From Diphasiastrum complanatum (taxonomy: Eukaryota > Streptophyta > Lycopodiopsida > Lycopodiales > Lycopodiaceae), in NCBI GenBank assembly GCA_029204225.1, contig CM055109.1:32091870-32155869 (forward strand): 64,000 nt of DNA, read 5' to 3'. Below are positions 7,166 to 59,674 of this stretch, in pieces (the stretch's first letter is position 1; every line of letters begins with the position of its first letter). The notes beneath the pieces were generated by a model. It saw nothing but the letters and a program-made list of their open reading frames with translations. It was not told where the DNA came from and ran no database searches. Position numbers and translations under genes: made by a program.

Positions 7166-8411
7166 TGTCATACTATACCAACAAGGTTAATATAGATTTT
7201 GTAGTAAATAACGTCGAACTTACACAGGACAGCGTTAGAAAGTTATGTATTTGGTACAATTTATGATTTATTTCGATTGAAGTGGCTTCGGGCATTATTT
7301 TGGCTGTCAACAGACATTAGAAAGTAACTAGTATTACTTGTGTTGGGGGTGTGTAGTGTTAATAATTCTATAACAGCAGTCTTGCCTCTATCAAATTGAA
7401 AGAAATGCGTTCTACAAGTGAGATGTTAAGGTGTTAACAGAGAGTGGAGAAATAAAGGTGTCAATTGAGAGTGGAAAAATGTTCGATGTATTTGTGGTTG
7501 TGCAGACAATTAATTAATCGTATTCGCGAACTGTTTGTTTCTAGACAAAAGTCCTCAACAACTTAAGTCCAAAGTTATGGCTAAAGAGCACGAATAGTTT
7601 TAGAGCACGTTAGAAACTTATGTCAGTTACAAGCAAGAACACAGATCAAAGACTCAATCCTTCAAACAGGGACTGACATCTCAGATGTATACATACAGTT
7701 TCATTCAATGATCGTGCTAGACTGTACTAAGTGTAAACGTTATTCGAGTGCCGAAAAGAAAGTATTTGCGACAGACAAATAAGAGGATTCTAAGACAATT
7801 ATTTAGAGCATATTTACGGATACAAAACAAACGACTGTAATGCGCTAGAGAGTCTGTCTGACCAGAGAGTAAATCATGTAATGCGTTAGAGATTGCTAGT
7901 AGACTCAGGATCACTCACACTCAATAGTGCAAAGAACAAAGATAAGGGAGAATAATTCTTAGCACTCTATTCACTTTTTCAATCTCTCACAATACGTAAA
8001 CTCTTCTCTCTCGATGGTTGAGACTGAAGCATATGATCAATATATGTTCTACGAGGCGAACAAACACACCTCTAAAACAACAGGTGCGTCGCTCCCGTGA
8101 AAAGGTCTAGTTAACAATTAGGTTGAATGTATGTTCAATTATACCATAAGAGGTATATTTAACTAAGAGTTAAAATTACTCTAGTTTAACATGTCAATTC
8201 ATATTTAGTCGTTTTGCGTAAATGACCTAGTAAAGGCTATTCAAGGTAGCGTTTTCCCTTTTAAAGGTCTCGTCCTTAAATACAAGGCAAGTACTTAGGA
8301 GATATATTCTCGAAAATTGACTTAGGCCTCTTCATGATTTATATTTATCCAGCTCATATCTTCATTTTTGAGTATATTATGCCATATTTAGGTTGATATT
8401 GTGGCATCACA
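7166..8411 (-). repeat. Ty3/gypsy LTR, family B (3' LTR on minus strand)
   Basis: The 1246-bp LTR reads TGTGATGCCAC... to ...AGTATGACA on the minus strand. It matches the + strand LTR at 39154-39818 along both arms, but has about 585 extra bases in the middle that the other copy has lost. Immediately to the right (8412-8424) the minus strand reads GAAGAAGGGGATA, a polypurine tract, so this is the 3' end of an element whose body lies to the right. It interrupts the PLD C2 exon. Confidence 0.8.
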
Positions 8412-22050: not shown

Positions 22051-23517
22051 TCACATCATATCTTCGTGCTTGATTTCCATTCTAATCTCAGATCTAATGA
22101 GGCCAAATACTTCATTGTGGATATAAGTGTCCTTAGAGGATGATTCACTAACTCTCATAAAGAGTTTACAATTTGCCTCAATACATGAAAAAAGACAAAT
22201 TTTCACACTATGAGTGAGCAAATCACTCTTGCTCTTGCAAGACTCAAGAGCATACATTTGATGAAATAACCATTTGCTTTCTAATTGATCTAAAATCAAT
22301 TTGAAATCATTAAGAACATCAACTATGTTCTCAAGAGAGACACCATACTCAACTAGTATTGCTTTACTCCAACTTTGAGTTGCAAAAGTCTCACCAAAGC
22401 AAATTGATTCACCAAATGACATAAGAGAAGCAAGCATAAGATGTATACCACTTGAAATGTGCTCCTCTTTCCCTTGAAATGTGAGCCATATGAGCTCAAC
22501 CATGTCTCTTGATATTCTTCTTGGAATCATAACTTGAGAAGGACTCTCCTCCTCAATCCTTGGCACACTTGAACCTTGAGATGACTCCTTAACTTCTTGG
22601 TGCTCCTCCTTGATGGAAATCCGAGACCTCCATGTCTCATAATGATCACAATAAACATGACCATACATTGTGCACTTTCTATGATCAACAATATTACTTA
22701 TGCTAGAACCATAAGTCCAAAAATCACCACAACTTGACATGATTTTTCTAATATTGAAATCAAGAAGTATTTCCATCTCAGTAAGGCTAACTACTTGCTT
22801 ATGGATATAAGTGTCCACTTTGGATGCTTCACTTATTCTCATAAGAAGTTTACAACTTGCCTTTAAAATTGAAAATTTACAACTTTCAACATTATGAATG
22901 AACACATCATTCATGATCTTATTGAAACCAAAAGAAAATACATCATGAAGACATTTCCATTTCCTTGTCTTTATACTCAATGTAAGTTTACAAGAAAAAC
23001 ATGCTTTGCTATCTATTAAGGCATCACACTCAACTAGTATTGCCTTAATCCACATTTGAGATACAAAAATCTCTTCAAAGCAAAATAGTTCTTTAAAAGA
23101 TGTCATGAGAGCATAAATGGAACTATTTTCATTTTGTGATTGCTCCTCCTTAATTTTGCTTGGTTTCTCTTGGATCATAAAAATAACTTTGAACTTATCC
23201 AAAGTTCCAAACAAAATGCTTTCCAAAAACATGAAATAAATCCAAGTGACATTCATGAAAGAAACATCTTTCTTTGCATCTTCAACCAAACAATACACTT
23301 CCAAATGAAAAACTTCTAGAGGTTTGAAATGTGTGGTGATGGACTTTTGAAGACAACTCTTGTAAGTCCTTGTGAGACTCCAAGCCTCATGCATCTTTCC
23401 ACAAAGGAAACACATTTCCTTGGATTTGTCCTTCTTGCCTTTGCATTTTGCACTTGAAGCTCCATCCTTCACCTCGGCCCCCTTGCTTTGGTTCTCCTTG
23501 GATGGATTGGTCTTCAT
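22051..23517 (-). CDS. 488-aa protein of unknown function in a non-autonomous LTR element; two internal repeats
   Basis: One open frame from ATG with no domain I can name. Residues 1-55 are lysine-rich with CFLCGKMHEAW, which looks like the linker plus a damaged zinc knuckle of a copia Gag. The remainder is rich in Ser, Ile, Phe and Cys and contains two diverged copies of a module of about 125-150 residues (about 133-255 and 356-482). Both copies carry SF...CF-E-F---W-KAILVE, then C-F------CKL-MR-SE-S---DTYIH--V. A shorter stretch at the end of the 55935-59009 protein matches this module (C-F, CK, SEAS, DT, VVS). Stop, polypurine tract and LTR C follow in the right order, so it is the cargo ORF of an LTR element that lacks pol. 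Its 5' part, including the Gag core and 5' LTR, is cut off at 23534 by an LTR A scrap. Expression and function are unknown. Confidence 0.6.
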   Translation of the reverse strand: MKTNPSKENQSKGAEVKDGASSAKCKGKKDKSKEMCFLCGKMHEAWSLTRTYKSCLQKSITTHFKPLEVFHLEVYCLVEDAKKDVSFMNVTWIYFMFLESILFGTLDKFKVIFMIQEKPSKIKEEQSQNENSSIYALMTSFKELFCFEEIFVSQMWIKAILVECDALIDSKACFSCKLTLSIKTRKWKCLHDVFSFGFNKIMNDVFIHNVESCKFSILKASCKLLMRISEASKVDTYIHKQVVSLTEMEILLDFNIRKIMSSCGDFWTYGSSISNIVDHRKCTMYGHVYCDHYETWRSRISIKEEHQEVKESSQGSSVPRIEEESPSQVMIPRRISRDMVELIWLTFQGKEEHISSGIHLMLASLMSFGESICFGETFATQSWSKAILVEYGVSLENIVDVLNDFKLILDQLESKWLFHQMYALESCKSKSDLLTHSVKICLFSCIEANCKLFMRVSESSSKDTYIHNEVFGLIRSEIRMEIKHEDMM

Positions 23518-24889: not shown

Positions 24890-25121
24890 CTATAGCCTAC
24901 TGGCTTGTATAAATTTGCATGCTTTTTGAATTTTTTTATAATCCGTCGATTTTGTATTATGACGAATTTGGATTCTTCTGTAAAACCATTGGAAAAGTTG
25001 CAGTATATAGCTGGTTTTTGTGCTAGTCCCGCCATGTTGTGTACTTTTATGAAATGTCGCTCTTGCTTGCCAATTAGATTTTTCCTTTCCTTGCGATGAC
25101 CATATGCTAAGACTTCCACTA
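24890..25121 (-). pseudogene. C-terminal part of the split unknown gene (continuation of 32103-34490)
   Basis: The minus-strand frame reads KSNWQARATFHKSTQHGG, then YILQLFQWFYRRIQIRHN, and stops at about 24890. It joins on to the minus-strand gene at 32-34.5 kb across the solo-LTR insertion: the 5-bp target duplication CACTA (25117-25121 and 32103-32107) marks the cut. I infer they were one gene before insertion. The exact exon joining at the insertion point cannot be settled by eye. Confidence 0.5.
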
Positions 25122-25394
25122 TGTTGGGGGTATTCCCAACAAAGTATAAATAAATAAAATCCTCCAATAAAATGTGTTGCGAGGGCATGGCATCCTGCGT
25201 GTATAAGCCCATGGCCCAATGAGCACGCAATTGAAGTTGTAAATAAAATAGACTTGACTTGGGCCTTGTAATTAAAATAAAACTAGAGGCCCAATGTCAT
25301 TTTTAAACTTAGAGATCACTTTTTAGAGTTGGGTCCAAATTGGGACTCACACGAATCTTGTGATTTCTAATGTAGTTTTTGTGGACCCTTGGAG
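25084..25394. repeat. 311-bp direct duplication, left copy (right copy 31252-31562)
   Basis: The 311 bases to the left of the intact copia are repeated, identical as far as I can read, to its right at 31252-31562. The block covers 38 bp of the host gene (CCTTTCCTTGCGATG...), the CACTA target site, and the first 273 bp of the gypsy solo LTR. Ordinary copia insertion duplicates 5 bp, so this needs another explanation, discussed in the findings. Confidence 0.9.
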
Positions 25395-26047
25395 TGTGAA
25401 AAACTCAGATCCAAAAGATGCTAAAGTTTCATAAAGATCTTGGCCATGGAAGTTATGCACATCTAGATTGAAAAAATGATAGAAATTGTGATGTTAAGCA
25501 TACTAAACATCAACTAAACATCAAAATCTGATCATAAGCTTCCACAAACAGAAACTTGCTGTCCCTGTCCGTACTTCAGAGCCTACAACCTGCATTTCAC
25601 ACGTGTGAAGCCATAGCAACAAAGAAATCACAATTCTAGTGGCTAGAATGCAAGATATGAACAAAAAAGTGAGAGAGAAGAAGATGGATCTTCAAAGAGC
25701 ATAACATTCATTCAATAGAATGAAAATGAGATGTGTACATACTCGTGGAGATGGCTATTTATAGCAGCCATAGTGCCTCTTGGCCACTTGTCTTATGATA
25801 GGCTAAAATTGGGGTCCAATAGGATTCACCCATATACCTAGAAATTTGGTCAAATAGGAATGCACCAAATTATGAGCCAATAGAAGAGCTCCACACTCGA
25901 CCTCCTCTAATTAATGTGACCTCAAAAGTAGTGTACACATACTTTGGGCCTCTACATACATGTATGAACCTATCTCTAACTTTTATTTGGCCATAGGCCT
26001 ACAAAATCTCAAGTTAGGAAAATACTACTAGTTGACAATTTTTCACA
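25395..26047 (-). repeat. 3' LTR of intact copia (653 bp)
   Basis: It begins TGTGAAAAATTGTC (minus strand, 26047) and ends CTGAGTTTTTCACA (25395). The G-box palindrome lies at 25596-25609. A probable TATA box, CTATAAATAG on the minus strand, is at 25755-25764, with CCAAT-type boxes about 60-140 bp upstream of it. Confidence 0.95.
25755..25764 (-). promoter_or_regulatory. TATA box in copia LTR
   Basis: CTATAAATAG on the minus strand lies within the LTR, downstream of CCTATTGGAC and CTATTGGCTC boxes and upstream of the G-box palindrome. The identical site in the 5' LTR is at about 30963-30972 and would drive the element's own transcript. Confidence 0.6.
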
Positions 26048-29000
26048 CTCCCTCTTCAACTAGTTTTAGCATAGATTTAGAAAGTACACCAAGACTTGTT
26101 CTATGCTTGAAAAATAAGTCCTTTCCCAATGCTTTGGTAAAGATATCAGCCACACATTCCTTTGATGGGACATGTTCAAGCTTGATCTCTTTTGCCAACA
26201 CTTGTTCTCTCACAAAATGGTAAGCCACCTCGATATGTTTGCTCCTTGCATGGAAAACCGGATTGCTTGCTAGACTTTGGGCTGAAAGGTTGTCACAAAA
26301 GATGATTGGACTCTCTGAAAAATCCAGCAAATGAAGCTCCATAATCATCCTCTTGATCCACACCATCTCCTTTGTGCATGATGTCAAAGCTTTGTACTCG
26401 GCCTCACTAGAAGAAAGTGATATAGTTGCTTGTTTCTTCGACATCCATGAGATAGCTCCATCACCTATGAAAATAGCATGTGCATTTATGGATTTTCTAT
26501 CCATAAGGTCTCCTGCAAAATCTGAATCTGAAAAACCAAATAAGTTAGGTGATGAGCCTCTATAAACAATGCCAAAATCTTTTGTTCCCGAGATGTATCT
26601 CAAGATCCTCTTTCCTAGTTTCCAATGTTCTATGCTAGGATCTTGCATGAATTGGCTTAATCTACCAACACAATAAGATAAATCAGGTCTTGTGATGGTT
26701 AGATATATAAGAGAACCTATTAGCTTCCTATAGAGAGTAATGTCCTCGAAGGATCTTTCATTACCTCTTATAGTTAGCTTTACATGTGATTCCATAGGTG
26801 TATCAATAGGATTTGCATCTACCATATGAAATCTATTGAGAATAGAAATAGCATACTTCTCTTGTGAAATAAAAGTGATTTGAGAAGTTCTAATTACTTC
26901 TATTCCTAAGATATAGCTCAAAAGACCAAGATCATGCACTTCAAATTCCTTTTTTAGTGCTTTCTTGATATCTTCTATATCTTCCTTGTTCCCTCCACTT
27001 AAAATAATGTCATCCACATAAATTAGAAGGATTGTAACATCATTAGCACTAATTCTAAAGTAAAGTGAATGATCATACTCACTCATAGTGAAGTTTTGAG
27101 AAAGTAGAAAAGAGTTAAGCCTAGCATACCAACTCCTTGGTGCTTGCTTAAGACCATACAAACTTTTTTGTAGAAAACACACATGATTAGGCTTGCTATG
27201 AGAAACATAGCTCTCGGGTTGCTCCATGTAGACTTCCTCTTCAAGATCACCATTCAAGAAAGCATTAGAAATGTCTAATTGCCAAAGATCCCATCCATAA
27301 AGAGTTGCAAGGGAAATGATTACTCTTATGCTCACCATCTTTGCCACGGGTGCAAAGGTTTCCTCATAGTCAATGCCATGCTCTTGAGCATAACCTTTAG
27401 CCACCAACCTTGCCTTCAACTTGTTGATAGATCCATCTTGATTTGTCTTTACCTTGAAGATCCATTTGCATCCAATTGCACTTTTGCCCTTTGGAAGCTC
27501 CACCAATCTCCATGTGTTGTTCTTCATAAGTGCTTCAAACTCAAGATCCATTGCTTGGATCCATTCCTCTTCTTGCCTTGCTTCATCTACACATGAAGGT
27601 ACATCAAAAGAAGTTAGGAAAGCATAGTTGGATCCATCCACCACTTGCTTACCTTTGCCATCATAAGTGAGCCTTGAGGGTTTCACTTTATGCCTTGGAG
27701 TTCTCCTTGGAATTTGACTTGAAGAGGCTTCTTCAACATCCACATCCAATGTGTCATCAACTCCATTGTCATCAAGCACATTAGTTGCAACAACACCATC
27801 ATCACTTGAAACAACTTTTGGAATGTTACCTTCATCAAAAATGACATCCCTACTTGTGAACACTTTCTTGATTGAAGGAACATAAATCCTATATGCTTTG
27901 CTTACTTCACTATAACCAACAAAAATGCCCTTTCTTGAAGATGGATCCTCCTTAGTTCTATCATCAAGAGTAATGTTGAAGTAGCAAATGCATCCAAAAG
28001 TTCTTAGAAACTTGACATTAGGCTTCGTACCAAACAAAGCTTCAAAAGGGGTTTTTCCTTCCAATACAACACTTGGCCATCTATTGCATAGGAAATTTGC
28101 ACACAACAAAGCATCACTCCAAAAAGGTTTAGGAAGATTAGCATTCAATCTCATTGCCTTTGCACTCTCACACAAGGTTCTATTCTTCCTCTCGGCCACT
28201 CCATTTTGTTGTGGTGTTCTTGGACATGTGTACTCCCTCTTGATCCCATGCTCATCGCAAAAGGCTTTGAATTTGTTAGAAATGTATTCTCCACCATTGT
28301 CGCTCCTCAAGCATTTGATTTTGGTTGTAAATTGAGTCTCAATAGCAACTTTGAACTTGACAAACACATCAAACACCTCATCCTTGCTCTTTAGTAGATA
28401 AACCCAACAAAATCTACTAAAATCATCAATGAAAGTTACATACATCTTAGCACCTCCATTGCTAATTGTAGTAACACCATGAATATCCGAATGCAAGAGA
28501 GAAAAAGGCATCTTAGATCTAGATATAGATCTAGTATATGGCAATCTATGTGATTTAGACAAAGCACATTCTTCACAAACATGATTCAAGCAAGTAAGAG
28601 ACTTGGGAAGTCCCCTTACTACCTCCTTTTTGGCTATTACCTCCAAGGCCTTGTAGTTGAGATGTCCCATCCTTTTATGCCATACCTCTTGAATTGACAT
28701 TTGTTCATTTGCCATGCATCCAACTTGGTTAGCAACAACACATGCATCAAGCTTGAACAATTTCCCTTGCCTTTTCCCTTTTGCAATGATACTACACCCC
28801 TTTTTGATCAAGCAAGCATCACCATCAAACTCAACTTTGAATCCTTTGTCAAGCATTTGGCTTACACTAAGTAAGTTCTTGGTAATGGATGGAATGAGCA
28901 AAACATCTTTCAATTCTATATTCCTATTTGTAGAAAGTGAAATAGGAATTGTGCCAATCCCCTTGATTGCACACTCACCATCATTTGCGGTATAGATTAC

Positions 29001-29993
29001 CTTCCTATCACCATCAAATGCCATTAAAGATGAAAAATACTCTTTATGATATGTCATATGAGAAGTGGCTCCACTATCAATCCACCAAGGATCAATGTCT
29101 CCATGATTAGCCAACAAGCAAGATGACATAACAAAAGCATCATTTGAAAGAAGCTCATCCCCACCCTCATCAATAGTTAGATTGGTTTGCTTTTCCCCTT
29201 GATCCCTCTTTTTCTTAAAACAATCACTAGCAAAATGCCCTTTGACTCCACAATAGAAACATTTTAGCTTAGATCTATCCTTCTTTTTGCCAAAAGTAGA
29301 GTGCTCACCTTGGTCTTGCCCTTTAGACCAATTGTTTTTACCTTTGCCCTTGAACTTGCCTTTAGAGAACATTGCCTCCTCTTCTCCTCCTTGAGATGTA
29401 GAAGATGCTCCCACTCTTGCTTGCAACCTGAATTCTTCAGCCAACAAGACCTCTTGCAAGTCTCCAACACTTGGTAAACATTTTTGGATAGCATAACTTT
29501 GAACAAGATTAGCATGATCATCCAACAAGCCATTGAGAATCACTTGAACAAGCTCCTCATTATTTATGCCATCATTAATGCATGCTAACTCATCATTCAA
29601 TGCTTTAACTCTCAAAACAAAAGCATGTCCATTCTCACTCTTCTTTTGCATACAAGAAAAGATTTGCCTTCTTAAAGTCAACACTCTAGAAGTAGACTTG
29701 GATTCATAAACCTTCTTCAAGGCTTCCCAAGCTTCACTAGATGATGTGCACTTACCAACCTCTTTGATAAGCTCATTTGTCACATTCATCTTGATCATGT
29801 GAAGGGCTTTCTTTGCCCTCTTGTCATACCTCAATTGTTCTTGAGGTGCCAAAGGTCTCTCCTCCACACCTACAACAATATCCATCAACTCATTCATCTC
29901 AAGCAAAGACTCCATCCTTACTTTCCAAGTAGAATAGTTGAGGGAGGTAAGCCTATCATTGCTTTCCAACATGTAGCCTCCATTTGTAGCCAT
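26043..29993 (-). CDS. Copia Gag-Pol polyprotein, 1316 aa, intact
   Basis: One frame from ATG carries every copia domain in order. Gag of the UBN2 type is at about 1-200 (YSTWKVRMESLL, STSRVLTLRRQIF). A zinc knuckle CFYCGVKGHFASDC lies at 245-258, and the protease DSGATSHM at 306-313. The GAG-pre-integrase HKRMGHLNYKAL is near 439-450. The integrase has D503 (HSDIHG), D565 (RSDNGGEY) and E601, spaced D-x61-D-x35-E. RT has QLDISNAFLNG at about 906-916 and YVDD at 992-995. RNase H has FSDSDFAGD, SSSEAEY and ADIFTKAL. The length is normal for single-ORF plant copia. The stop codon TGA overlaps the first bases of the 3' LTR, and the last codons are the polypurine tract itself. I see no disabling change, so it could supply enzymes in trans. 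Its Gag is very similar to the Gag-only proteins at 46 and 56 kb. Confidence 0.95.
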   Translation of the reverse strand: MATNGGYMLESNDRLTSLNYSTWKVRMESLLEMNELMDIVVGVEERPLAPQEQLRYDKRAKKALHMIKMNVTNELIKEVGKCTSSSEAWEALKKVYESKSTSRVLTLRRQIFSCMQKKSENGHAFVLRVKALNDELACINDGINNEELVQVILNGLLDDHANLVQSYAIQKCLPSVGDLQEVLLAEEFRLQARVGASSTSQGGEEEAMFSKGKFKGKGKNNWSKGQDQGEHSTFGKKKDRSKLKCFYCGVKGHFASDCFKKKRDQGEKQTNLTIDEGGDELLSNDAFVMSSCLLANHGDIDPWWIDSGATSHMTYHKEYFSSLMAFDGDRKVIYTANDGECAIKGIGTIPISLSTNRNIELKDVLLIPSITKNLLSVSQMLDKGFKVEFDGDACLIKKGCSIIAKGKRQGKLFKLDACVVANQVGCMANEQMSIQEVWHKRMGHLNYKALEVIAKKEVVRGLPKSLTCLNHVCEECALSKSHRLPYTRSISRSKMPFSLLHSDIHGVTTISNGGAKMYVTFIDDFSRFCWVYLLKSKDEVFDVFVKFKVAIETQFTTKIKCLRSDNGGEYISNKFKAFCDEHGIKREYTCPRTPQQNGVAERKNRTLCESAKAMRLNANLPKPFWSDALLCANFLCNRWPSVVLEGKTPFEALFGTKPNVKFLRTFGCICYFNITLDDRTKEDPSSRKGIFVGYSEVSKAYRIYVPSIKKVFTSRDVIFDEGNIPKVVSSDDGVVATNVLDDNGVDDTLDVDVEEASSSQIPRRTPRHKVKPSRLTYDGKGKQVVDGSNYAFLTSFDVPSCVDEARQEEEWIQAMDLEFEALMKNNTWRLVELPKGKSAIGCKWIFKVKTNQDGSINKLKARLVAKGYAQEHGIDYEETFAPVAKMVSIRVIISLATLYGWDLWQLDISNAFLNGDLEEEVYMEQPESYVSHSKPNHVCFLQKSLYGLKQAPRSWYARLNSFLLSQNFTMSEYDHSLYFRISANDVTILLIYVDDIILSGGNKEDIEDIKKALKKEFEVHDLGLLSYILGIEVIRTSQITFISQEKYAISILNRFHMVDANPIDTPMESHVKLTIRGNERSFEDITLYRKLIGSLIYLTITRPDLSYCVGRLSQFMQDPSIEHWKLGKRILRYISGTKDFGIVYRGSSPNLFGFSDSDFAGDLMDRKSINAHAIFIGDGAISWMSKKQATISLSSSEAEYKALTSCTKEMVWIKRMIMELHLLDFSESPIIFCDNLSAQSLASNPVFHARSKHIEVAYHFVREQVLAKEIKLEHVPSKECVADIFTKALGKDLFFKHRTSLGVLSKSMLKLVEEGV
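26048..26060 (-). other. Polypurine tract of intact copia
   Basis: The minus strand reads GTTGAAGAGGGAG directly before the LTR start TGTG. The same string precedes the 3' LTR at 59023 and a close form precedes the one at 13187. Confidence 0.85.
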
Positions 29994-30590
29994 GTTGCAA
30001 TGATTGATCTCTGATCTTTGACCTGTTCCAATGCACTAAGCACTCTCTTGAATCAACAAATGAAACACAAGAAGAAATCACAAAGATTTGGAACCTAAAA
30101 CCTTACTTTTTCTCTCTTTTCCTCACTTTTTCCTTAATTTTAGCCACTAGTTTTATGATTTCTTGATCAAACCAAGACCAAACCTCAATATACTTGCTTT
30201 TCCCTCACTCCTAAGATTGAAATACACTCTTGAATCATTCAGCAAACTGAAAATCAGAGGGTTACATCAATTTTGAAGTTTTTGACATGAAGAAGCAAGA
30301 AATTGAATCAAAAAACTATATGCTAGAATGGAAAACTAATAGGATCTTGTTGGATCTTGCATCTCCCTCTTTCCAAAACAATTTTTGTCTCCTTATTCTG
30401 ATAAGTACAGAGGGAATTCGCCCTACTTCAATTGAAATGCATACAAATGATGTTTTGATCACAAAGATCCAATTTCTACACATAAATCAACAAGATTTTT
30501 AGCTAGAAACTTGATTGGAATGCTACAAAAGCAAACTCGCCCACAAATCTCTTCTAAATCTGGCAAAACCTGCACATTTGGCCGCCTAAT

Positions 30591-30602
30591 GCTCTGATAC
30601 CA
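30591..30602 (-). other. Primer-binding site of intact copia (tRNA-Met type)
   Basis: TGGTATCAGAGC on the minus strand lies directly after the 5' LTR end. This is complementary to the 3' end of plant initiator tRNA-Met, the usual copia primer. Confidence 0.9.
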
Positions 30603-31251
30603 TGTGAAAAACTCAGATCCAAAAGATGCTAAAGTTTCATAAAGATCTTGGCCATGGAAGTTATGCACATCTAGATTGAAAAAATGATAGAAATTGTGAT
30701 GTTAAGCATACTAAACATCAACTAAACATCAAAATCTGATCATAAGCTTCCACAAACAGAAACTTGCTGTCCCTGTCCGTACTTCAGAGCCTACAACCTG
30801 CATTTCACACGTGTGAAGCCATAGCAACAAAGAAATCACAATTCTAGTGGCTAGAATGCAAGATATGAACAAAAAAGTGAGAGAGAAGAAGATGGATCTT
30901 CAAAGAGCATAACATTCATTCAATAGAATGAAAATGAGATGTGTACATACTCGTGGAGATGGCTATTTATAGCAGCCATAGTGCCTCTTGGCCACTTGTC
31001 TTATGATAGGCTAAAATTGGGGTCCAATAGGATTCACCCATATACCTAGAAATTTGGTCAAATAGGAATGCACCAAATTATGAGCCAATAGAAGAGCTCC
31101 ACACTCGACCTCCTCTAATTAATGTGACCTCAAAAGTAGTGTACACATACTTTGGGCCTCTACATACATGTATGAACCTATCTCTAACTTTTATTTGGCC
31201 ATAGGCCTACAAAATCTCAAGTTAGGAAAATACTACTAGTTGACAATTTTT
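30603..31251 (-). repeat. 5' LTR of intact copia (649 bp, terminal TGTG missing)
   Basis: Identical to 25395-26043. The outer end stops at the AATTTTT tract; the expected CACA (the first TGTG of the LTR on the minus strand) is replaced by CCTTTCC of the duplicated flank. The G-box palindrome is at 30804-30817. Confidence 0.95.
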
Positions 31252-31562
31252 CCTTTCCTTGCGATGACCATATGCTAAGACTTCCACTATGTTGGGGGTA
31301 TTCCCAACAAAGTATAAATAAATAAAATCCTCCAATAAAATGTGTTGCGAGGGCATGGCATCCTGCGTGTATAAGCCCATGGCCCAATGAGCACGCAATT
31401 GAAGTTGTAAATAAAATAGACTTGACTTGGGCCTTGTAATTAAAATAAAACTAGAGGCCCAATGTCATTTTTAAACTTAGAGATCACTTTTTAGAGTTGG
31501 GTCCAAATTGGGACTCACACGAATCTTGTGATTTCTAATGTAGTTTTTGTGGACCCTTGGAG
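31252..31562. repeat. 311-bp direct duplication, right copy
   Basis: Identical as read to 25084-25394. After it, the gypsy solo LTR continues uninterrupted (CAAGTTGGGTCC), so this right copy is the one in the original context on its right side, and the left copy in the original context on its left side. Confidence 0.9.
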
Positions 31563-45780: not shown

Positions 45781-46089
45781 GTAGAATTTGAGATATTGAA
45801 TTTTTTGTGATTTTGTCAAAACCCTAATTTTAATTGGATCTCTAGTTTGTGAGGTTACTGAACTTCATTTGAGTGTGTTTCAATCTTAGAAAGTGGCAAG
45901 AATCATTAGATTGAGGATAGATCATAGGTTGATCACTATTCTATGTGTTGATTTTCTAGTTAGAAGTGCTAGAAGAGATTTGAGAGGTTCCATATCTTTG
46001 CGATTTCTTCTTGAGTTCATTTGTTGACATTCAAGAGAGTGCTTTGTGCATTGGAACGGGTTGAAAGGAGAAGATCAAGTCATTGCAAC

Positions 46090-46977
46090 ATGGCTACAAG
46101 TGGTGGATTCATGTTGGAAGGCAATGATAGGCTTACTTCAATCAACTATTCTACTTGGAAGGTGAGGATGGAGTCCTTATTGGAGTTGAATGAGTTGATG
46201 GAGATTGTTGCAGGTTTGAAGGAGAGACCAACAACTCAACAAGATCAAATGAGGTATGATAAGAGGGCCAAAAGGGCTCTACACATGATTAAGATGAATG
46301 TTAACAATGAACTTCTCAAGGAGATTGGTAAGAGCACATCATCTTTGGAGGCTTGGGAAGCTTTGAAGAAGCTTTATCAATCCAAGTCTACATCTAGAGT
46401 GTTGACTCTAAGAAGACAAATTTTTCAAAGTTTGCAAAAGAAGGAAGAGAGTACTCATGATTTTGTTTTGAGGGTTAAAGCATTCAATGCTGAGTTAGCA
46501 TGTATTGATGAAAGCATTAAGGAGGTAGAACTTGTTCAAGCTATACTTAATGTTCAAGTTATACTTAATGGCTTGTTGGATGATCATGCTAATATTGCTC
46601 AAAGTTTTGCTATTCAAAAGACTTTGCCAAGTATTGTGGATTTGCAAGAGATCTTGGTGAATGAGGAGTATAGTCTTCAATCAAGAAGAGGTGAATCTAC
46701 ATCGACATCTCATTCTGTAGAGGATGCTATGTTCATCAAAGGCAAGTTCAAGGGCAAAGGCAAAGGAAAGTGGTCTAAAGAGCAAGATCAAGGTGAGACT
46801 TCCTCTTTTGGCAAAAAGAAAGATATGTCTAAGTTGAAATGCTTTTATTGTGAAATCAAAGGGCATTTTGCTAATGAATGTTTGAAGAGAGTAGATCAAA
46901 TGGTTCTATCAAGAGACTTTGTGAGGGAGATAGTCACAAGTCAAGAAGAAGAGAAGTATGTGAAGAGTTCAAAGTAG
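46090..46977 (+). CDS. Copia-type Gag with zinc knuckle, from a Gag-only element (295 aa)
   Basis: The ATG at 46090 begins MATSGGFMLEGNDRLTS, with the same UBN2 Gag as the intact copia at 26-30 kb (YSTWKVRMESLLELNELM, STSRVLTLRRQIF). The zinc knuckle CFYCEIKGHFANEC lies near residue 261. An 18-bp tandem duplication at 46536-46571 inserts six extra residues (the VQAILN/VQVILN repeat). After the knuckle there is no protease: the frame jumps across a deletion into the accessory region found in the 55935-59009 protein (joined near 46885) and stops at 46977. The leader before the ATG resembles that of the intact copia. Probably a decayed non-autonomous element; no LTR pair was found. Confidence 0.8.
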   Translation: MATSGGFMLEGNDRLTSINYSTWKVRMESLLELNELMEIVAGLKERPTTQQDQMRYDKRAKRALHMIKMNVNNELLKEIGKSTSSLEAWEALKKLYQSKSTSRVLTLRRQIFQSLQKKEESTHDFVLRVKAFNAELACIDESIKEVELVQAILNVQVILNGLLDDHANIAQSFAIQKTLPSIVDLQEILVNEEYSLQSRRGESTSTSHSVEDAMFIKGKFKGKGKGKWSKEQDQGETSSFGKKKDMSKLKCFYCEIKGHFANECLKRVDQMVLSRDFVREIVTSQEEEKYVKSSK

Positions 46978-47513
46978 GATGTACTTTGAATGATGTCATT
47001 GTGAATGATAGTGAGGATGAATCATTATCATATGAGTCATTACCTAAAACATTGAGTAGAAGTTCCTGTTTGAAAAAAGAGAGTACTTCAATCATCCTTA
47101 TGTTGAAGGTACTAATCATTTTTTTCATGGCTTCTAATTATTTTTGAGGTTTCTACTTCTTATGATGCAATCATTAAGAGGGAGTCCTATGAAGGAAAGA
47201 GCAATGGAAGATCCAAGGCATGGACTCACAACTCTTCATCAACTCAAAAGATTCTATGATTGTGGATTGATCACTCATGATCAAGATGGCAAAAGGTTGG
47301 TTGGAGAAGACTACATGGAGCAAATCGAGGCAATTTCTTCAAGGCAAGGGAGATCTCATTGGTGAGCTTATTGAGGCTTGTTATGGACTCAAGAAGACTG
47401 GATTTATTAGGTTTGATACTCATCTTCACCTACTCTACTTCATGTTGGATGGAAAGTTTGGAATCTATCATTTGATTTATGATGGTGCCACCAATGACAT
47501 TGTTCTGACTAAC
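46978..47513 (+). pseudogene. Accessory region of the Gag-only element, decayed
   Basis: Homologous in several frames to about residues 470-650 of the 55935-59009 protein. Parallels include VGCTLNDVIVNDSEDESLSY, SLPKTLSRSSCLKKESTS, then FYDCG--THDQDGKRLV, EDYMEQ, GDLIGELIEACY and IRFDTHLHLLYFMLDGK. Frameshifts and stops break it, and homology ends abruptly near 47513. Relative to the 56-59 kb copy, about 570 bp between the zinc knuckle and this region are missing. Confidence 0.8.
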
Positions 47514-53539: not shown

Positions 53540-54114
53540 CTCATTCCGAATGGAATGGGAAAATCATCCACTACCTTCGTATCTTTCACAACCAACTGGT
53601 CACCTTGCAAATCAGTAACCGATTGAGAGCCATTTAAAATCGTTTGCCATTTAGGTCCGAAGTGAGGATCTTGTTCATAAAGACCTCAAAATGAAAGATA
53701 GAAATTAGTAGTGACCTAAGTGAACAAAAACTCATTCATCTCTCCAATCCGACTTAAGGCGTCTGCCACTTGATTTGACGATCATTTTATATATCTCAAA
53801 TCAAAGTTGAATTCTTGCATCAGTTCAGCCCATCAAGCCTTTTGCTTTCGGATTACAAAAATATTTTAATGGTTGGTGATCTGACTTACTATAGATTGAC
53901 TAACATAAATAGTGTCTCCACATCTTCAACGCATGCACAACCGCAAAAGTTCTTTTTCTTGGGTCGTATACCTAGTCTTTGCATCAGATAATTTCTTACT
54001 CTCAAAAGCAACTGGCCTCCCCTCTTTTTGAAGAACTGCACCAAACACATAATCACTAGCATCCACTGTAACCAAATAAGGATCCACTATGATCAACACT
54101 GGTGCTGAGACAAT
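53540..54114 (-). pseudogene. Gypsy RNase H relic (downstream half of split gypsy pol)
   Basis: The minus strand reads APVLIIVDPYLVTVDASDYV, GAVLQKEGRPVAFESKKLSD and TRYTTQEKELL, the gypsy RNase H start, then degraded sequence (QDPHFGPKWQTILNGSQS) leading into the H2C2 finger. The upstream (RT) half is at 59675-60010. The Gag-only element 54115-59669 separates them, with ACAAT duplicated at the break. Confidence 0.8.
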
Positions 54115-54192
54115 TGTGAAAATTGTCAACATTTCCTTGTCTAGTTTTAGGCCAAAATTGCTAAAAATGGCACATAGTTTAGGATCTGACTT

Positions 54193-54206
54193 TTCACACG
54201 TGTGAA
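54193..54206 (+). promoter_or_regulatory. Palindromic G-box in LTR
   Basis: TTCACACGTGTGAA is a perfect 14-bp palindrome with a CACGTG core, the binding site type of plant bHLH and bZIP factors. It lies about 180 bp upstream of the TATA-like box. The same or a nearly identical palindrome occurs in LTRs at 2274, 11330, 13594, 21040, 23683, 25596, 30804 and 59101. Confidence 0.6.
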
Positions 54207-54382
54207 ACAGGTCTAGATATTTTTAGTAAGTGTATTTTTTCAGTATGAAGAAGTGTCAAACTTCAAGACCTTCGAAATGAGTCCATTTTCATGTATTTTG
54301 GACATATATGCCAATTTTACCTATATAGGGCATATTTTAGGTAAGGAGGGTCTAGAGAGAGGAGAGAGAGTCATCTCTCTCA

Positions 54383-54392
54383 GCTATATATA
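54383..54392 (+). promoter_or_regulatory. TATA box of the Gag-only element
   Basis: CTATATATAG within the 5' LTR, directly after a short GA/CT hairpin. The same site in the 3' LTR is at about 59291-59300. It is the only strong TATA-like string at a sensible place in the LTR. Confidence 0.55.
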
Positions 54393-54761
54393 GCAGGTAG
54401 GCCGTGGAGAAACAGGTTGGAGCAGATCCATTGTATTCATTTGCTTAATGAGAGATTTTTCTATTGGGTTCTCCTTCCATTGTTGGCATTGTGTAGTGAT
54501 TGAGTTCAAGCTTTGTGTGTATGATCTTAGGTGCTTTCCAAAAGTGGTAGGCTGATGTATTATGGACTGTATAATGCTATTTTGGGCCGCACTTGATGTT
54601 TATGAAAGTTTCCATTTGTGATAAATGCTTTTTGATCAAGTTCTTTGCATTCTAGGTAGCATAGAATGTGTTGCCAATTCCTAGCTTATGTAGTTTGGAG
54701 TGCAAGCATTCAAGCCAATGATCTTGGAGTTTAGATCCACTTAGGATCTGTATTTTTCACA

Positions 54762-54773
54762 TGGTATCAGAGC
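54762..54773 (+). other. Primer-binding site (tRNA-Met type)
   Basis: TGGTATCAGAGC immediately after the 5' LTR, the same as in the intact copia at 30591-30602. Confidence 0.9.
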
Positions 54774-55934
54774 TGGTTGGCTTCTATTTACAGTAAGTAT
54801 TCCATTTTTGGTGATATTTGGATGTTTGATCAAGTTCTAGCATGATTTTGCATTGCTTTGTTGATCAAATCTTACTAACCTTTGTTTTGTGAGTTGAACT
54901 TGTGGATCAAAAGCATATTTCAGGTCTATTGAAGATCAGAGGCTGAAAAGAAACTATTTTGGATCAGATCATAACACCTAATCATTTGTGATTGTGAGGC
55001 TTGTGCATATTCAATACTAACAATGTTCTTTTCAATCCTATTGTTGACAATCTCCATTCTTGGATGAACACTCTCCTTAAGTGGATGAAACTTCTCCTTA
55101 AGTGGATGACAAATGCTCTTTTGAGTGAGTTGTAATTCTCCTAAAGGCTGAGCAAAGCTCCCATTTGGATGAAAGATCCCCTTCTTTGGGTGAACATATT
55201 GTAAGCTCCATTGTGAAGAGCATATTGTAAAGATTGTCATCAATTTTGGCATAATTTTTGGTGTACTTTGTTGAGCATGTAAGTAACTCTCCTTATGTAA
55301 TTTGATTGGAGCATTTGCTGGAAGGTGTTAACCATTATGCAAGTGTGTTTTCAGGTTCTTAACAGGTTGAGGAACATTCTCATGTGAAGTGATCTTAGAT
55401 CTACATCTAAACACCAAATTTTGACAAGATAGTGAAGCTAGTCTTGTGATTCACTAAGTGTGCTCATTCATTCACCTCTAAATCTTGTATTTATCACTTG
55501 CTGGAGTTTATAAACTTTTAGAAGTGTGGTTTACATGTGGTTTTACAGGTTGAATCAATATCTTAGTGTGGTGATCATATGTTGATCAAGTTTGTTCATT
55601 ACTAGGTAATTTTGGCATCCTAGTTTTGGGTATTTTCTAAGAATGCAAGTAACTCTTCACACCATAACTTGATTTGGTCACTTGCTGGAAAGTTTGAGAG
55701 CTTAAGCAAGAGTGTGTTCAGGTTGGTTTGAGTTTGTAATCCATTCTTAGTGTGTGCAAAGTGTTGCATGTGTTTCAATCTTCCTTTCTATGCTTGAAAG
55801 CCAAATAGTTTCAAGATAGAGGTCATTTAGGGTTCTAAATCTTTTAAGATCTTCTCCTTCTTCATTTATTGAGAGAAAGGAGAGTGCTAGGTGCATTAGA
55901 ACAGAGCCTAAGGACACAAGAAGATATTAGCATC
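54774..55934 (+). other. Leader of the Gag-only element, with tandem repeats
   Basis: Three diverged copies of a unit of about 184 bp are visible. The phrase TTGCTGGA recurs at 55315, 55498 and 55682, each followed within 40-50 bases by an AAGTGTG--TT-CAGGTT tract. At 55060-55120 the phrase CTCCTTAAGTGGATGA is repeated twice, with a third, weaker copy. The leader would hold the packaging and dimerisation signals. Confidence 0.65.
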
Positions 55935-58900
55935 ATGACATCCAATGGTGGAATCATGTTGGAAGCTAAAGAGAGGTTAAACTCTACAAACTATTCAACT
56001 TGGAAAGTGAGGATGGAGTCTTTACTAGAGTTGAATGAGCTAATGGATATAGTTGTGGGAATTGAAGAAAGACCTCTAATTCTTCAAGAGCAACTAAATT
56101 TTGATAGAAGGGCTAAAAGAGCCTTACATATCATAAAGATGAATGTTACCAATGAACTTCTTAAAGAAGTTGGTAAATGTACTTCTTCAAGTGAAGCATG
56201 GAATGCTTTGAAGAAGATCTATGAGTCCAAATCCACATCTAGGGTTCTCACCCTAAGAAGGCAAATCTTCCAAAGTTGTCAAAGAGAGGGAGAGAGTGCA
56301 CATTCATTTGTCTTGAAGGTTAAATCCTTGAATGATGATCTAGCATGCATAGATGAAAGCATAAAGGATGGGGAACTAGTTCAAGTCATGTTGAATGGTT
56401 TGCTTGATGAACATTCTAACCTTGTACAATGCTTTGCTATACAAAAGTCCTTGCCAAGTGTCAATGACTTGCAAGAGATCTTGGTGGCTGAAGAGCATAG
56501 GTTGCAAGCCAAAGGTGGTGGTGCATCAACACAAGGTGGAGATGAAGAAGCTCTTTTCACAAAGGGCAAGTTCAAAGGCAAGTGGTCCAAGCAAGGTAGT
56601 TTGGAGCATGGAAAGCATTCTTCTTCTTTGCAAAGTAGGAAGCAAGATAAGTCCAAGTTCAAATGTTTTTATTGTGGAGTGAAAGGACATTTTGCAAATG
56701 AATGCCATAAGAAACAAAATGCTAGATCTAGGTTGAGATCTAATGTACTTCTTGGAGATGATAATTGTTGTGCTAACTTGGCAAGCTTTGGTGAATCTAT
56801 GGTCAATTTTTTGGATCCATTGGATCTTGAAGATGGACTAGTGCTACCTACTAGTCAAATGGAGTCATGTGGAGCTAAATTAGCATCATGTTTGTACTCT
56901 TCTACTCATGGACTTCCAAGGCTTGTTGGTTCTTCAATGGTGCTAGATGGCAAGTGCAAAAATGGAAAAGGTAAGGAAGGAGCTAACTTCATCAATGGAG
57001 TTGATGAAGATTCTTCTTTGGAAGTGATTGTTGCTAATGACTTGTTTGTTCATATGGAAAAAGATGGAGATGCTAAGTGTCATTCTTTGCAAGAAGATGG
57101 TTGTTCTTCTAATTCTTTTCATATTGATGTATGTAATCATGTGGGAAAAGATGATGGTGCTTTGAGCATGCTTGAAGGAAATGGTTCTTTTACATCTTTT
57201 TGTGATAAAGTCATTTGTGCAACAAGTGGTGTCACATTTCTTCATAAAAAGAGTAGATCAAAGGTTTCTATCATGAGACTTGGTGAGGGAGATCACAAGT
57301 CAAAAGGAAGAGAAGTATGTGAAGTGTTCAAAGTAGGATGTACTTTGAATGATGTTTTTATGAACGATAGTGAGGAAGAATCATTATCATATGACTCATT
57401 ACCTAAATCATTGAGTAGAAGTTCATGTTTGAAAAGAGAGAGTACTTCAATCACTCTTATGTTGAAGGTACTAAGGATTCTTTTCTTGGCTTCTAATATT
57501 CAAGAGTCTTCTACTTCTTATGGTGCAACTATCAAGAGGGAGGTTTCTAACTTTTGTGGTGCTAGCATTAAGAGGGAGTCTTGTGAAGGAAAGGGCAATG
57601 GAAGAGTGGTTCTTGGGAAGATCCAAAGCATGGATCTAACATCTCTTCATCAACTCAAAGCATTCTATGATTGTGGTGGATTGTTCATTCATGGTCAAGA
57701 TGGCAAAAGGTTGGTTGAAGAAGACTACATGGAGCAACTCAAGTGGCAACTTCTTCAAGGCAAGGGAGATATCATTGGTGAGCTTATTGAGGTTTGTTAT
57801 GAACTCAAGAGGGCTGTTTTGATTAGGTTTGATACTCATCTTCACCTACTCTACTTCATGTTAAATGGAAATGTTGGAATCTATCTTTTGGTTTATGATG
57901 GTGGCATTGTTTTCACTAACTATAGTGAAGGGTCAAATTTGAGCATTGATGAGATCTTGTGGGATCTTAATCATGTGTTTGAGAGGGAGTATCTTCAGAG
58001 TTTCAGATCTGAAGATGTTCACATATGCAAGATCTTTGATGTCTTATTGGAAGATCAAGAGGTTGATCTTGGATTGCTTCATCAACACCAAGAGACAAGT
58101 GGCAATTCGAAGCTAGTGAAAAGCATCAAAGAAGAGACAAATGGTCAAGGCATTTTGAATCTGTTTTTACAGGTTCTTGAAGGTTCAAGTAAGGTCTTTG
58201 GAGCTGCAAGGAAGTGTCTTCTTACTCTACCTCACTTGCCTAATCTCATGTATGAACATTGTTATGTCAATGTGTTGAAATTGTCAAATTTCAATAAAAC
58301 TAGTTCCATAGTTTTGCATCCTTTGGATCTTGGAGATGGAATAGTTATCATTGCTGGTTTGTATGATCAAGTACATGAATTCATTCAGATCTTGAAAGGT
58401 ATTGAAGTGGTCAATATGTTTTCTTTTGAACAAAGTTCAAGATCTAGTATTCTAGTGTTGGCAAATTGGCAACTTGTTGACATTGTAGGATCAAGCGTTG
58501 TGTGCAAATCTTGTGGAGGTACTTCAAGTATTTCAAGTTCAGGTTTTGGTCATTCAAATGGAGTAGGGAACACATCTTTTTGGCATTCATTCACTCAAAG
58601 GCTTTCATGGATTGAAGATCTACAAAGGCAAGGTGGTGACGGAAGTTCATTCATGGAGATACATGTTGCATTCACTATATGTATAGTGAAATGTGGAGGA
58701 GGCATGCAAACACTTGTTGATCACTTTCATTTACAACTTGTTTGCTGCTATTTTACAGAGAAACCAGAGATGGATACATGGAGGAATTCATTAATTGAGA
58801 TTCTATGTTCTTTTACATGTACCATTTTTATGATTCTATGTAAAATTGATGTAAGAAATAGTGAAGCATCCTATATGGACACTATTATCTATATCAATTA

Positions 58901-59009
58901 TGTTGTGTCCTATTTTGTACATATTAGGATCCTTGAGAAGAGATCTATTCTGATGATGGAGATCATTCTTAAGTTGGAACAAAGTAGTGTTGTAAAACTA
59001 GCAAGTTAA
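55935..59009 (+). CDS. Gag fused to ~757-residue protein of unknown function (1024 aa)
   Basis: The start is at ATG 55935 (MTSNGGIMLEAKERLNSTN), matching the Gag start of the intact copia; the frame is open 66 bp further upstream without ATG. Residues 1-190 are UBN2 Gag (YSTWKVRMESLLELNELM). The zinc knuckle CFYCGVKGHFANEC is at 244-257. From about 268 to 1024 nothing matches protease, integrase or RT. This part is rich in Ser, Leu, Cys and His. It has a DEDSSLEVIVANDLFVHMEK stretch, a GCTLNDVFMNDSEEESLSYD acidic motif, hydrophobic runs (ITLMLKVLRILFLASN; CSFTCTIFMILCKIDV) and an IRFDTHLHLLYFMLNGNVGI core. The C-terminus (SEASYMDTIIYI) resembles repeats of the 22051-23517 protein. An uninterrupted frame this long in AT-rich DNA is unlikely without selection. 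Polypurine tract and LTR follow directly. The function is unknown; envelope-like, chaperone-like or host-derived roles are all open. Confidence 0.85.
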   Translation: MTSNGGIMLEAKERLNSTNYSTWKVRMESLLELNELMDIVVGIEERPLILQEQLNFDRRAKRALHIIKMNVTNELLKEVGKCTSSSEAWNALKKIYESKSTSRVLTLRRQIFQSCQREGESAHSFVLKVKSLNDDLACIDESIKDGELVQVMLNGLLDEHSNLVQCFAIQKSLPSVNDLQEILVAEEHRLQAKGGGASTQGGDEEALFTKGKFKGKWSKQGSLEHGKHSSSLQSRKQDKSKFKCFYCGVKGHFANECHKKQNARSRLRSNVLLGDDNCCANLASFGESMVNFLDPLDLEDGLVLPTSQMESCGAKLASCLYSSTHGLPRLVGSSMVLDGKCKNGKGKEGANFINGVDEDSSLEVIVANDLFVHMEKDGDAKCHSLQEDGCSSNSFHIDVCNHVGKDDGALSMLEGNGSFTSFCDKVICATSGVTFLHKKSRSKVSIMRLGEGDHKSKGREVCEVFKVGCTLNDVFMNDSEEESLSYDSLPKSLSRSSCLKRESTSITLMLKVLRILFLASNIQESSTSYGATIKREVSNFCGASIKRESCEGKGNGRVVLGKIQSMDLTSLHQLKAFYDCGGLFIHGQDGKRLVEEDYMEQLKWQLLQGKGDIIGELIEVCYELKRAVLIRFDTHLHLLYFMLNGNVGIYLLVYDGGIVFTNYSEGSNLSIDEILWDLNHVFEREYLQSFRSEDVHICKIFDVLLEDQEVDLGLLHQHQETSGNSKLVKSIKEETNGQGILNLFLQVLEGSSKVFGAARKCLLTLPHLPNLMYEHCYVNVLKLSNFNKTSSIVLHPLDLGDGIVIIAGLYDQVHEFIQILKGIEVVNMFSFEQSSRSSILVLANWQLVDIVGSSVVCKSCGGTSSISSSGFGHSNGVGNTSFWHSFTQRLSWIEDLQRQGGDGSSFMEIHVAFTICIVKCGGGMQTLVDHFHLQLVCCYFTEKPEMDTWRNSLIEILCSFTCTIFMILCKIDVRNSEASYMDTIIYINYVVSYFVHIRILEKRSILMMEIILKLEQSSVVKLAS

Positions 59010-59010
59010 G

Positions 59011-59022
59011 TTGAAGAGGGAG
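59011..59022 (+). other. Polypurine tract
   Basis: TTGAAGAGGGAG directly after the stop codon and directly before the 3' LTR. It is identical to the tract of the intact copia. Confidence 0.85.
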
Positions 59023-59669
59023 TGTGAAAATTGTCAACATTTCCTTGTCTAGTTTTAGGCCAAAATTGCTAAAAATGGCACATAGTTTAGGATCTGACTT
59101 TTCACACGTGTGAAACAGGTCTAGATATTTTTAGTAAGTGTATTTTTTCAGTATGAAGAAGTGTCAAACTTCAAGACCTTCGAAATGAGTCCATTTTCAT
59201 GTATTTTGGACATATATGCCAATTTTACCTATATAGGGCATATTTTAGGTAAGGAGGGTCTAGAGAGAGGAGAGAGAGTCATCTCTCTCAGCTATATATA
59301 GCAGGTAGGCCGTGGAGAAACAGGTTGGAGCAGATCCATTGTATTCATTTGCTTAATGAGAGATTTTTCTATTGGGTTCTCCTTCCATTGTTGGCATTGT
59401 GTAGTGATTGAGTTCAAGCTTTGTGTGTATGATCTTAGGTGCTTTCCAAAAGTGGTAGGCTGATGTATTATGGACTGTATAATGCTATTTTGGGCCGCAC
59501 TTGATGTTTATGGAAGTTTCCATTTGTGATAAATGCTTTTTGATCAAGTTCTTTGCATTCTAGGTAGCATAGAATGTGTTGCCAATTCCTAGCTTATGTA
59601 GTTTGGAGTGCAAGCATTCAAGCCAATGATCTTGGAGTTTAGATCCACTTAGGATCTGTATTTTTCACA
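59023..59669 (+). repeat. 3' LTR of the Gag-only element
   Basis: 647 bp, differing from the 5' LTR at one position that I can see (G at about 59521 where the 5' LTR has A). The G-box palindrome is at 59101-59114. Confidence 0.95.
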
Positions 59670-59674
59670 ACAAT

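What the first reader, a model, noticed from the sequence alone, without database searches (positions are those of the whole stretch)
54115..59669. Young Gag-only LTR element with a 757-residue unknown protein fused to Gag
The element has matching 647-bp LTRs (one visible difference), exact ACAAT target duplications, primer site and polypurine tract, so it moved recently. Its single 1024-codon frame keeps copia Gag and zinc knuckle but has, in place of protease-integrase-RT-RNase H, about 757 codons of unrecognised protein. Random AT-rich DNA would be expected to meet a stop within a few tens of codons, so the frame is probably maintained. Gag-only (TR-GAG) elements are known; a long conserved cargo fused to Gag is not something I know of. 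The tail may help packaging, chaperone the RNA, manipulate the host, or be captured host sequence.
Basis: partly seen in the sequence, partly recalled or inferred. Interest (0 to 1): 0.88.

Follow-up and report, generated by a model that had tools for sequence, protein, structure and literature searches.

The report
Gag-only retrotransposon with dead polymerase tail
A plant jumping gene that has lost its enzymes still keeps a very long reading frame open after its capsid gene; part of that stretch is worn-down polymerase sequence, and its frame seems to be kept while its protein is not, so being readable to the end may matter more than what is made.

Summary
The element at 54115-59669 has 647-bp LTRs (one difference), ACAAT target duplications, a PBS, a PPT and one 1024-codon frame: copia Gag plus zinc knuckle, then 757 codons without a Pfam hit. 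It belongs to a recent burst (35 of 35 scored genome matches full length).

The tail is not cargo. A profile of 12 tail copies matches the copia reverse-transcriptase palm (E 4.9e-6; 60 column shuffles all far lower), with YVDD lost, so it is at least partly dead pol in the original frame. Against an older, broken family with the same tail, fixed changes are spread evenly over codon positions (114/104/99) and N/S is neutral (1.01, CI 0.78-1.38). Yet no majority stop appears in 595 codons, and 13 of 15 fixed indels are multiples of three, against 13 of 72 private ones. Gag is clearly constrained. So the frame looks selected, not the protein.

Best reading: a helper-dependent Gag donor whose tail is a translated spacer that keeps the stop codon next to the 3' LTR, perhaps to escape RNA decay or silencing. 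That last step is inferred. Closest known case: wheat RLG_Quinta (Gag + DUF1).

The parts
54110..54114 (.). target-site duplication ACAAT, left
54115..54761 (+). 5' LTR, 647 bp, TG...CA
54762..54773 (+). primer binding site TGGTATCAGAGC (initiator-Met type, recalled); LTR end plus PBS 54741-54773 is 91% identical to the autonomous copia of the window
54774..55934 (+). leader between PBS and ORF
   Evidence: no coding signal; about 20% diverged in the second backbone over the 166 bases before the ATG that were covered
55935..56735 (+). Gag (aa 1-267) with CCHC zinc knuckle; under purifying selection
   Evidence: Pfam; codon-position differences 33/30/94 against L036 over 240 codons
56669..56669 (.). 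recombination breakpoint (to within about 100 bp): upstream about 20% diverged, downstream about 0.5%, between two families carrying the same tail
   Evidence: L036, binned; L037 and L038 were not binned but have nearly the same number of differences and the same first ones
56736..59006 (+). 757-codon open tail (aa 268-1024), frame kept, amino acids not visibly constrained
57711..57983 (+). degenerate reverse-transcriptase palm (aa 593-683): remains of VYMEQ, LYGLKQ and YVDDI, catalytic YVDD lost (YDGG)
59007..59009 (+). stop codon, 13 nt before the 3' LTR
59010..59022 (+). polypurine tract; stretch 59009-59038 (PPT plus LTR start) is 97% identical to the autonomous copia
59023..59669 (+). 3' LTR
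59670..59674 (.). target-site duplication ACAAT, right
45986..47513 (+). older broken relative: another Gag (64% aa identical) joined to tail aa 436-662 (aa 261-435 missing), frame broken
25395..31252 (-). autonomous copia of the same lineage (1316-aa Gag-Pol ORF 26043-29993), candidate type of helper; LTRs 650 bp identical

Best explanation
A non-autonomous Ty1/copia retrotransposon that supplies Gag and borrows enzymes from an autonomous copia with the same LTR ends, PBS and PPT. Its 757-codon tail is, at least around aa 593-683 and probably for more of its length, a catalytically dead remnant of copia pol that stayed in frame. Selection keeps the frame open but not the amino acids. I think the tail works as a translated spacer: ribosomes read on to a stop 13 nt before the 3' LTR, so the genomic RNA does not carry a 2.3-kb untranslated stretch behind Gag that would invite nonsense-mediated decay or siRNA-based silencing. 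Shown here: structure, burst, RT remnant, Gag constraint, neutral amino-acid change, kept frame, swap of Gag backbones. Inferred: helper use, translation of the tail, and the RNA-protection reason (about 0.35 on its own).
For: Profile match to copia RT E 4.9e-6, score 54.2 against a maximum of 27.9 in 60 column shuffles; each of 12 sequences (window + 11 old copies) beats all of its 200 shuffles against the RT stretch. Neutral amino-acid change: codon positions 114/104/99; N/S relative to the decay spectrum 1.013 (0.78-1.38); mean BLOSUM62 of replacements -0.31 fixed, -0.314 singleton; fixed versus singleton N/S, Fisher p 0.85. Frame kept: 0 majority stops in 595 codons, expected 4.5 to 17.8 depending on assumptions, P(0) from 0.01 to 1e-8; 13 of 15 fixed indels are multiples of three against 13 of 72 private, Fisher p 7e-7. 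Gag control 33/30/94. LTR ends, PBS and PPT shared with the autonomous element; elsewhere in LTR and leader only matches of 13-22 bases at E >= 0.01.
Against: An HMM of 114 copia RT-RH sequences does not recognise the single tail sequence (-2.1 bits; at least ten of 1000 shuffles score higher). Outside the RT block the pol homology is weak: aa 685-1024 z 1.5, 2.6 and -1.2 against three copia RT-RH stretches, aa 403-578 z 2.9, aa 267-402 z 0.1; whole-tail scores against five targets beat shuffles clearly for two (0 of 300), barely for one (3 of 300) and not for two (85 and 44 of 300). A neutral average N/S cannot exclude a mixture of positive and negative selection; aa 270-400 has pN/pS 0.67 on 62 codons, aa 400-700 1.46. 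The share of transitions differs between fixed (0.44) and singleton (0.54) changes. Seven fixed changes would make a stop on their own; other changes in those codons avoid it. Two of 15 fixed indels are not multiples of three (58372, 58550, badly aligned stretch). Only two tail families were compared. No transcript, ribosome or decay data exist here.
Confidence: 0.55

Rival explanations
1. The tail makes a fast-evolving functional protein (packaging aid, decoy Gag-Pol partner or host antagonist); N/S near 1 averages conserved and positively selected sites.
For: Frame kept and coding-like composition; aa 400-700 has pN/pS 1.46 and aa 270-400 0.67; the same tail was joined to two Gag backbones.
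Against: Replacements are as radical as those of dead copies and the overall N/S equals theirs; in five segments the replacement:silent counts are 28:9, 25:4, 28:4, 93:29 and 74:21, none much below the neutral 3.6. The AF2 single-sequence model of aa 436-1024 has pLDDT 31.8 and says nothing.
Confidence: 0.2
2. No selection on the tail at all: the source copies simply had not decayed, and the open frame is inheritance from pol.
For: N/S is neutral; stops occur in young copies (4 of 35 copies, one of the four in gag; 3 of 59).
Against: 317 fixed substitutions and 15 fixed indels separate two families without one majority stop and with 13 of 15 indels in frame; P(0 stops) on one branch alone 0.0001-0.01.
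Confidence: 0.12
3. Captured host gene fused to Gag, as in maize Bs1.
For: No Pfam, PDB or protein match in the tail; transduction is known for Bs1 (named in PMC7264820, part 1 of 3 seen).
Against: RT match; all 59 scored genome matches cover the whole tail at 99-100% with open frames mostly of 1035 or 1053 aa, as in the element. No host copy surfaced, but only 59 of 19,112 candidates were scored, so a diverged host gene could have been missed.
Confidence: 0.05
4. Constraint acts on the RNA (packaging signal or structure) rather than on reading.
For: aa 400-700 diverges less at silent sites too (pS 0.076, against 0.153 before it and 0.28-0.30 behind it).
Against: No Rfam match; for 8 sequences of that part the covariation term is unfavourable (+5.77) and 3 of 221 pairs show a two-sided change; would not explain indels in threes; recombination can explain rate differences.
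Confidence: 0.08

Closest known systems
RLG_Quinta / RLG_Cereba of wheat (PMC11302176, passages)
   Same: Non-autonomous LTR element with Gag plus a domain of unknown function (DUF1); LTR ends, PBS and PPT conserved with an autonomous partner; Gag variants exchanged by recombination.
   Different: Centromere-specific and of gypsy type (RLG; type recalled from the prefix); origin and selection of DUF1 not given in the passages seen; here copia, with part of the tail traced to dead RT and the frame kept.
TR-GAG elements (Chaparro et al. 2015, not held; PMC8704663 passages)
   Same: LTRs and one Gag-bearing ORF, no working pol; AT5TE33540 of this class transposed in Arabidopsis ddm1.
   Different: The ORF is Gag (562 aa in AT5TE33540); here 757 further codons, partly of pol descent.
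Pol-less Athila families (PMC2410132 passages)
   Same: Gag ORFs under purifying selection in enzyme-less families mobilised in trans; recombination between families.
   Different: No long unconstrained open tail in the passages seen; gypsy type is recalled.
Maize Bs1 (named in PMC7264820)
   Same: LTR element carrying sequence of other origin.
   Different: Transduced host genes; no sign of that here.

Membership tests
Ty1/copia LTR retrotransposon | LTRs with TG..CA, short target duplication, PBS, PPT | tested here: met
Ty1/copia LTR retrotransposon | copia-type Gag (Retrotran_gag_2) | tested here: met
   E 5.3e-22
Ty1/copia LTR retrotransposon | PR-INT-RT-RH order | not testable with these tools
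   no working pol; only an RT remnant
TR-GAG | Gag domain present, no pol domain recognised by Pfam | tested here: met
TR-GAG | single ORF that encodes Gag only | tested here: not met
   single ORF, but 757 of 1024 codons are not Gag; so it is filed beside, not in, TR-GAG. The definition was seen only in PMC8704663 passages
Quinta-like non-autonomous partner | LTR ends, PBS, PPT shared with an autonomous element | tested here: met
   91% over 33 and 97% over 31 bases
Quinta-like non-autonomous partner | Gag + unrecognised domain in one ORF | tested here: met
Quinta-like non-autonomous partner | Gag exchanged by recombination | tested here: met
RLG_Quinta itself | same lineage (gypsy) | tested here: not met
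   copia-type Gag
RLG_Quinta itself | centromere targeting | not tested
   no centromere map of this genome was available

The most novel reading that the evidence does not exclude
Selection acts on the openness of the reading frame and not on its protein: a dead pol is kept as a translated spacer that shields the RNA of a Gag-only element from decay or silencing, and the same module is passed between Gag backbones by template switching. The unrecognised tails of other Gag-plus-DUF elements could be the same thing.
Probability: 0.4. Interest if true: 0.8.

Novelty: new variant of a known kind. Interest (0 to 1): 0.58.

Why it matters
Here the frame and the protein come apart: the frame behaves as selected, the protein does not. 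If general, this gives such ORFs a testable job (RNA protection by translation) and warns that an intact 700-codon frame is not by itself evidence for a functional protein.

Tried and rejected
Pfam, PDB and protein searches of the tail: nothing. Gag search: none of 1737 candidates at 1e-10. HMM of copia RT-RH on the tail alone: negative. By-eye resemblance of aa about 320-335 to the protease DSGA region: not supported (z 0.07 for aa 267-402). AF2 of aa 436-1024 without alignment: pLDDT 31.8, not used, so no fold search was run. Rfam and RNAalifold covariation: nothing. Copy 45986-47513 against the element: codon positions 28/23/17, no purifying signal, but its frame is broken, so it was not used as proof. 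Second pol-like ORF 22051-23517: the genome search did not complete. Rows dropped: of 40 scored matches, 20 were fetched (L040-L059); 8 entered and 11 entered; L040 (deletion type), L041, L051, L053-L057 and L059 (left out as partial or less complete) were not used. Two edge runs (56635, 59022) were left out of the indel count of 17 (14 of 17 are multiples of three with them).

Full report
What is there. The element is as described: 647-bp LTRs at 54115-54761 and 59023-59669 with one difference, ACAAT on both sides, a PBS just inside the 5' LTR and a purine tract before the 3' LTR, and an ORF from ATG 55935 to stop 59009. Gag is recognised (Retrotran_gag_2 E 5.3e-22) with a sub-threshold zinc knuckle; the tail has no Pfam, PDB or protein match (one search was capped at 7999 candidates). 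The open tail is far from chance: 0 stops against 49.7 on average (minimum 30) in 300 dinucleotide shuffles, and codon statistics favour the frame over the five others in all four tail segments.

A recent burst. In the whole genome 35 of 35 scored DNA matches cover the query and are at least 99.5% identical over the element; 10,174 first-look candidates were not all scored, so this is a lower bound. Of the 35 (the window copy is one), 33 have exact 5-bp duplications, LTR pairs differ at 0-4 positions, none has an indel in the ORF and 31 have no stop (stops in L007, L008, L012, L018; that of L012 lies in gag). The protein search gives 59 of 59 scored matches over the whole tail at 99-100% identity, 56 without a stop. 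Within the burst single-copy changes look neutral in the tail (N 26, S 11, stop 3), as expected of dead insertions.

Two Gag backbones, one tail. Three fetched copies with a 1035-aa frame (L036-L038) differ from the window copy at 193-196 positions. In L036, which was binned, the difference is about 20% before 56669 and about 0.5% after. The break lies at the zinc knuckle. This is recombination by module, as reported for RLG_Quinta (PMC11302176, passages). A further broken relative at 45986-47513 has another Gag (64% aa identical) joined to tail aa 436-662.

Origin of the tail. tblastn and BLASTP of the tail give a weak but repeated match to copia RT: three separate pol frames of the window at aa 570-718 (E 0.019, 0.094, 1.0), E 0.001 against the autonomous element's protein, score 70 with 1 of 1000 shuffles reaching it. 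A profile of the tail from 12 copies against a profile of 114 copia RT-RH sequences gives probability 86%, E 4.9e-6 (for this one comparison), score 54.2, 84 columns at 35% identity; 60 column-shuffled tails score 19.1 on average, 27.9 at most. Each of the 12 sequences on its own exceeds all of its 200 shuffles. The aligned block runs through VYMEQ, LYGLKQ and YVDDI (motif names recalled); the catalytic YVDD reads YDGG. With BLOSUM45 a colinear alignment extends over aa 403-932 against pol 728-1248 (score 181, shuffles 101.6 +/- 14.7, 0 of 300), and a second copia RT also beats all 300 shuffles; a third is reached by 3 of 300, and two further targets are not distinguished (85 and 44 of 300). 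The parts outside the RT block are weak on their own: aa 685-1024 z 1.5, 2.6 and -1.2 against three targets, aa 403-578 z 2.9, aa 267-402 z 0.1. The RT HMM does not find the single tail sequence; at least ten of 1000 shuffles score higher. So pol descent is shown for aa 593-683 and only likely elsewhere.

Selection. A DNA search with the 45986-47513 copy found an older family (40 scored of 2264 candidates); 20 of the 40 were fetched and 11 used in the final counts. Eight members compared are 90-96% alike and broken by stops or frameshifts. Differences fixed (at least 85% of copies) between that family and the young element fall at codon positions 114/104/99 over 595 codons; N 242, S 68, and 7 that alone would give a stop but do not in their actual codons. 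Relative to the spectrum of private changes the N/S ratio is 1.013 (95% CI 0.78-1.38) and replacements are as radical as in dead copies; Fisher p 0.85. A first pass with 8 copies gave pN/pS 0.97 overall, 0.67 to 1.46 by segment. The transition share differs somewhat (0.44 fixed, 0.54 singleton). Gag behaves otherwise: 33/30/94 against L036, 54/36/122 against the autonomous element, 52/36/109 against the 45986 copy. Yet the frame is kept: no codon has a stop as its majority state. If all 317 changes were random, 17.8 stops would be expected from the decay spectrum or 9.1 from the observed stop share of singletons; if only the older family's half could show them, 8.8 or 4.5. Of 15 fixed indels inside the tail 13 are multiples of three, against 13 of 72 private indels (p 7e-7). 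The 11 old copies have 0-5 stops in this frame and 17-66 in the two others.

How it probably works. Gag is made (inferred) and constrained; enzymes are absent, so they must come in trans, and the window's own autonomous copia (25395-31252) shares the LTR end plus PBS (91%) and PPT plus LTR start (97%), with no further significant match in LTR or leader. Other members of that lineage may be the actual helper. The kept frame with free amino acids points to the act of translation. Its stop lies 13 nt before the 3' LTR. A stop after Gag would leave about 2.3 kb untranslated before the 3' LTR, a feature known to attract NMD in plants (recalled); translation-dependent silencing of the Arabidopsis copia EVD, where intense ribosome stalling coincides with the start of siRNA production on the short Gag RNA, shows that translation of Gag RNA can decide its fate (PMC8892269, abstract). 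The step from this to the tail is inference.

Known or new. Enzyme-less Gag elements (TR-GAG, Athila) and Gag plus unknown domain with shared cis-signals and Gag exchange (RLG_Quinta) are known. What I did not see in the listings of my literature searches (open-licence papers only, top rows only) is an unknown tail traced to dead RT with frame-only selection. I saw listings, abstracts, passages or parts, never a whole paper.

Noticed in passing
25078-25394 and 31246-31562: The autonomous copia 25395-31252 (identical 650-bp LTRs) is flanked by an exact 317-bp duplication where a 5-bp one is expected, and its right LTR seems to lack the last three bases; unusual integration, later duplication or assembly error.
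   Followed up: partly
22051-23517 (-): A 488-aa ORF without Pfam hit matches the linker/RT start of copia pol twice in tandem (BLASTP E 7e-7 and 4e-5): a second open, diverged pol-derived frame in the same window.
   Followed up: partly
L045, L046, L049, L050, L052, L058 against window 56778-56931: In these six old copies the segment matching aa about 281-332 lies near the 3' end of the tail instead of behind Gag: the tail has been rearranged.
   Followed up: no
45986-47513; G000:C18:33680120 and 33746286: The broken relative has two matches at 100% (rounded) about 1.5-1.6 Mb away on the same contig, probably segmental duplication.
   Followed up: no
57240-57920: This part of the tail diverges much less than 58000-59000 at silent and replacement sites alike; recombination or an RNA-level constraint.
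   Followed up: partly
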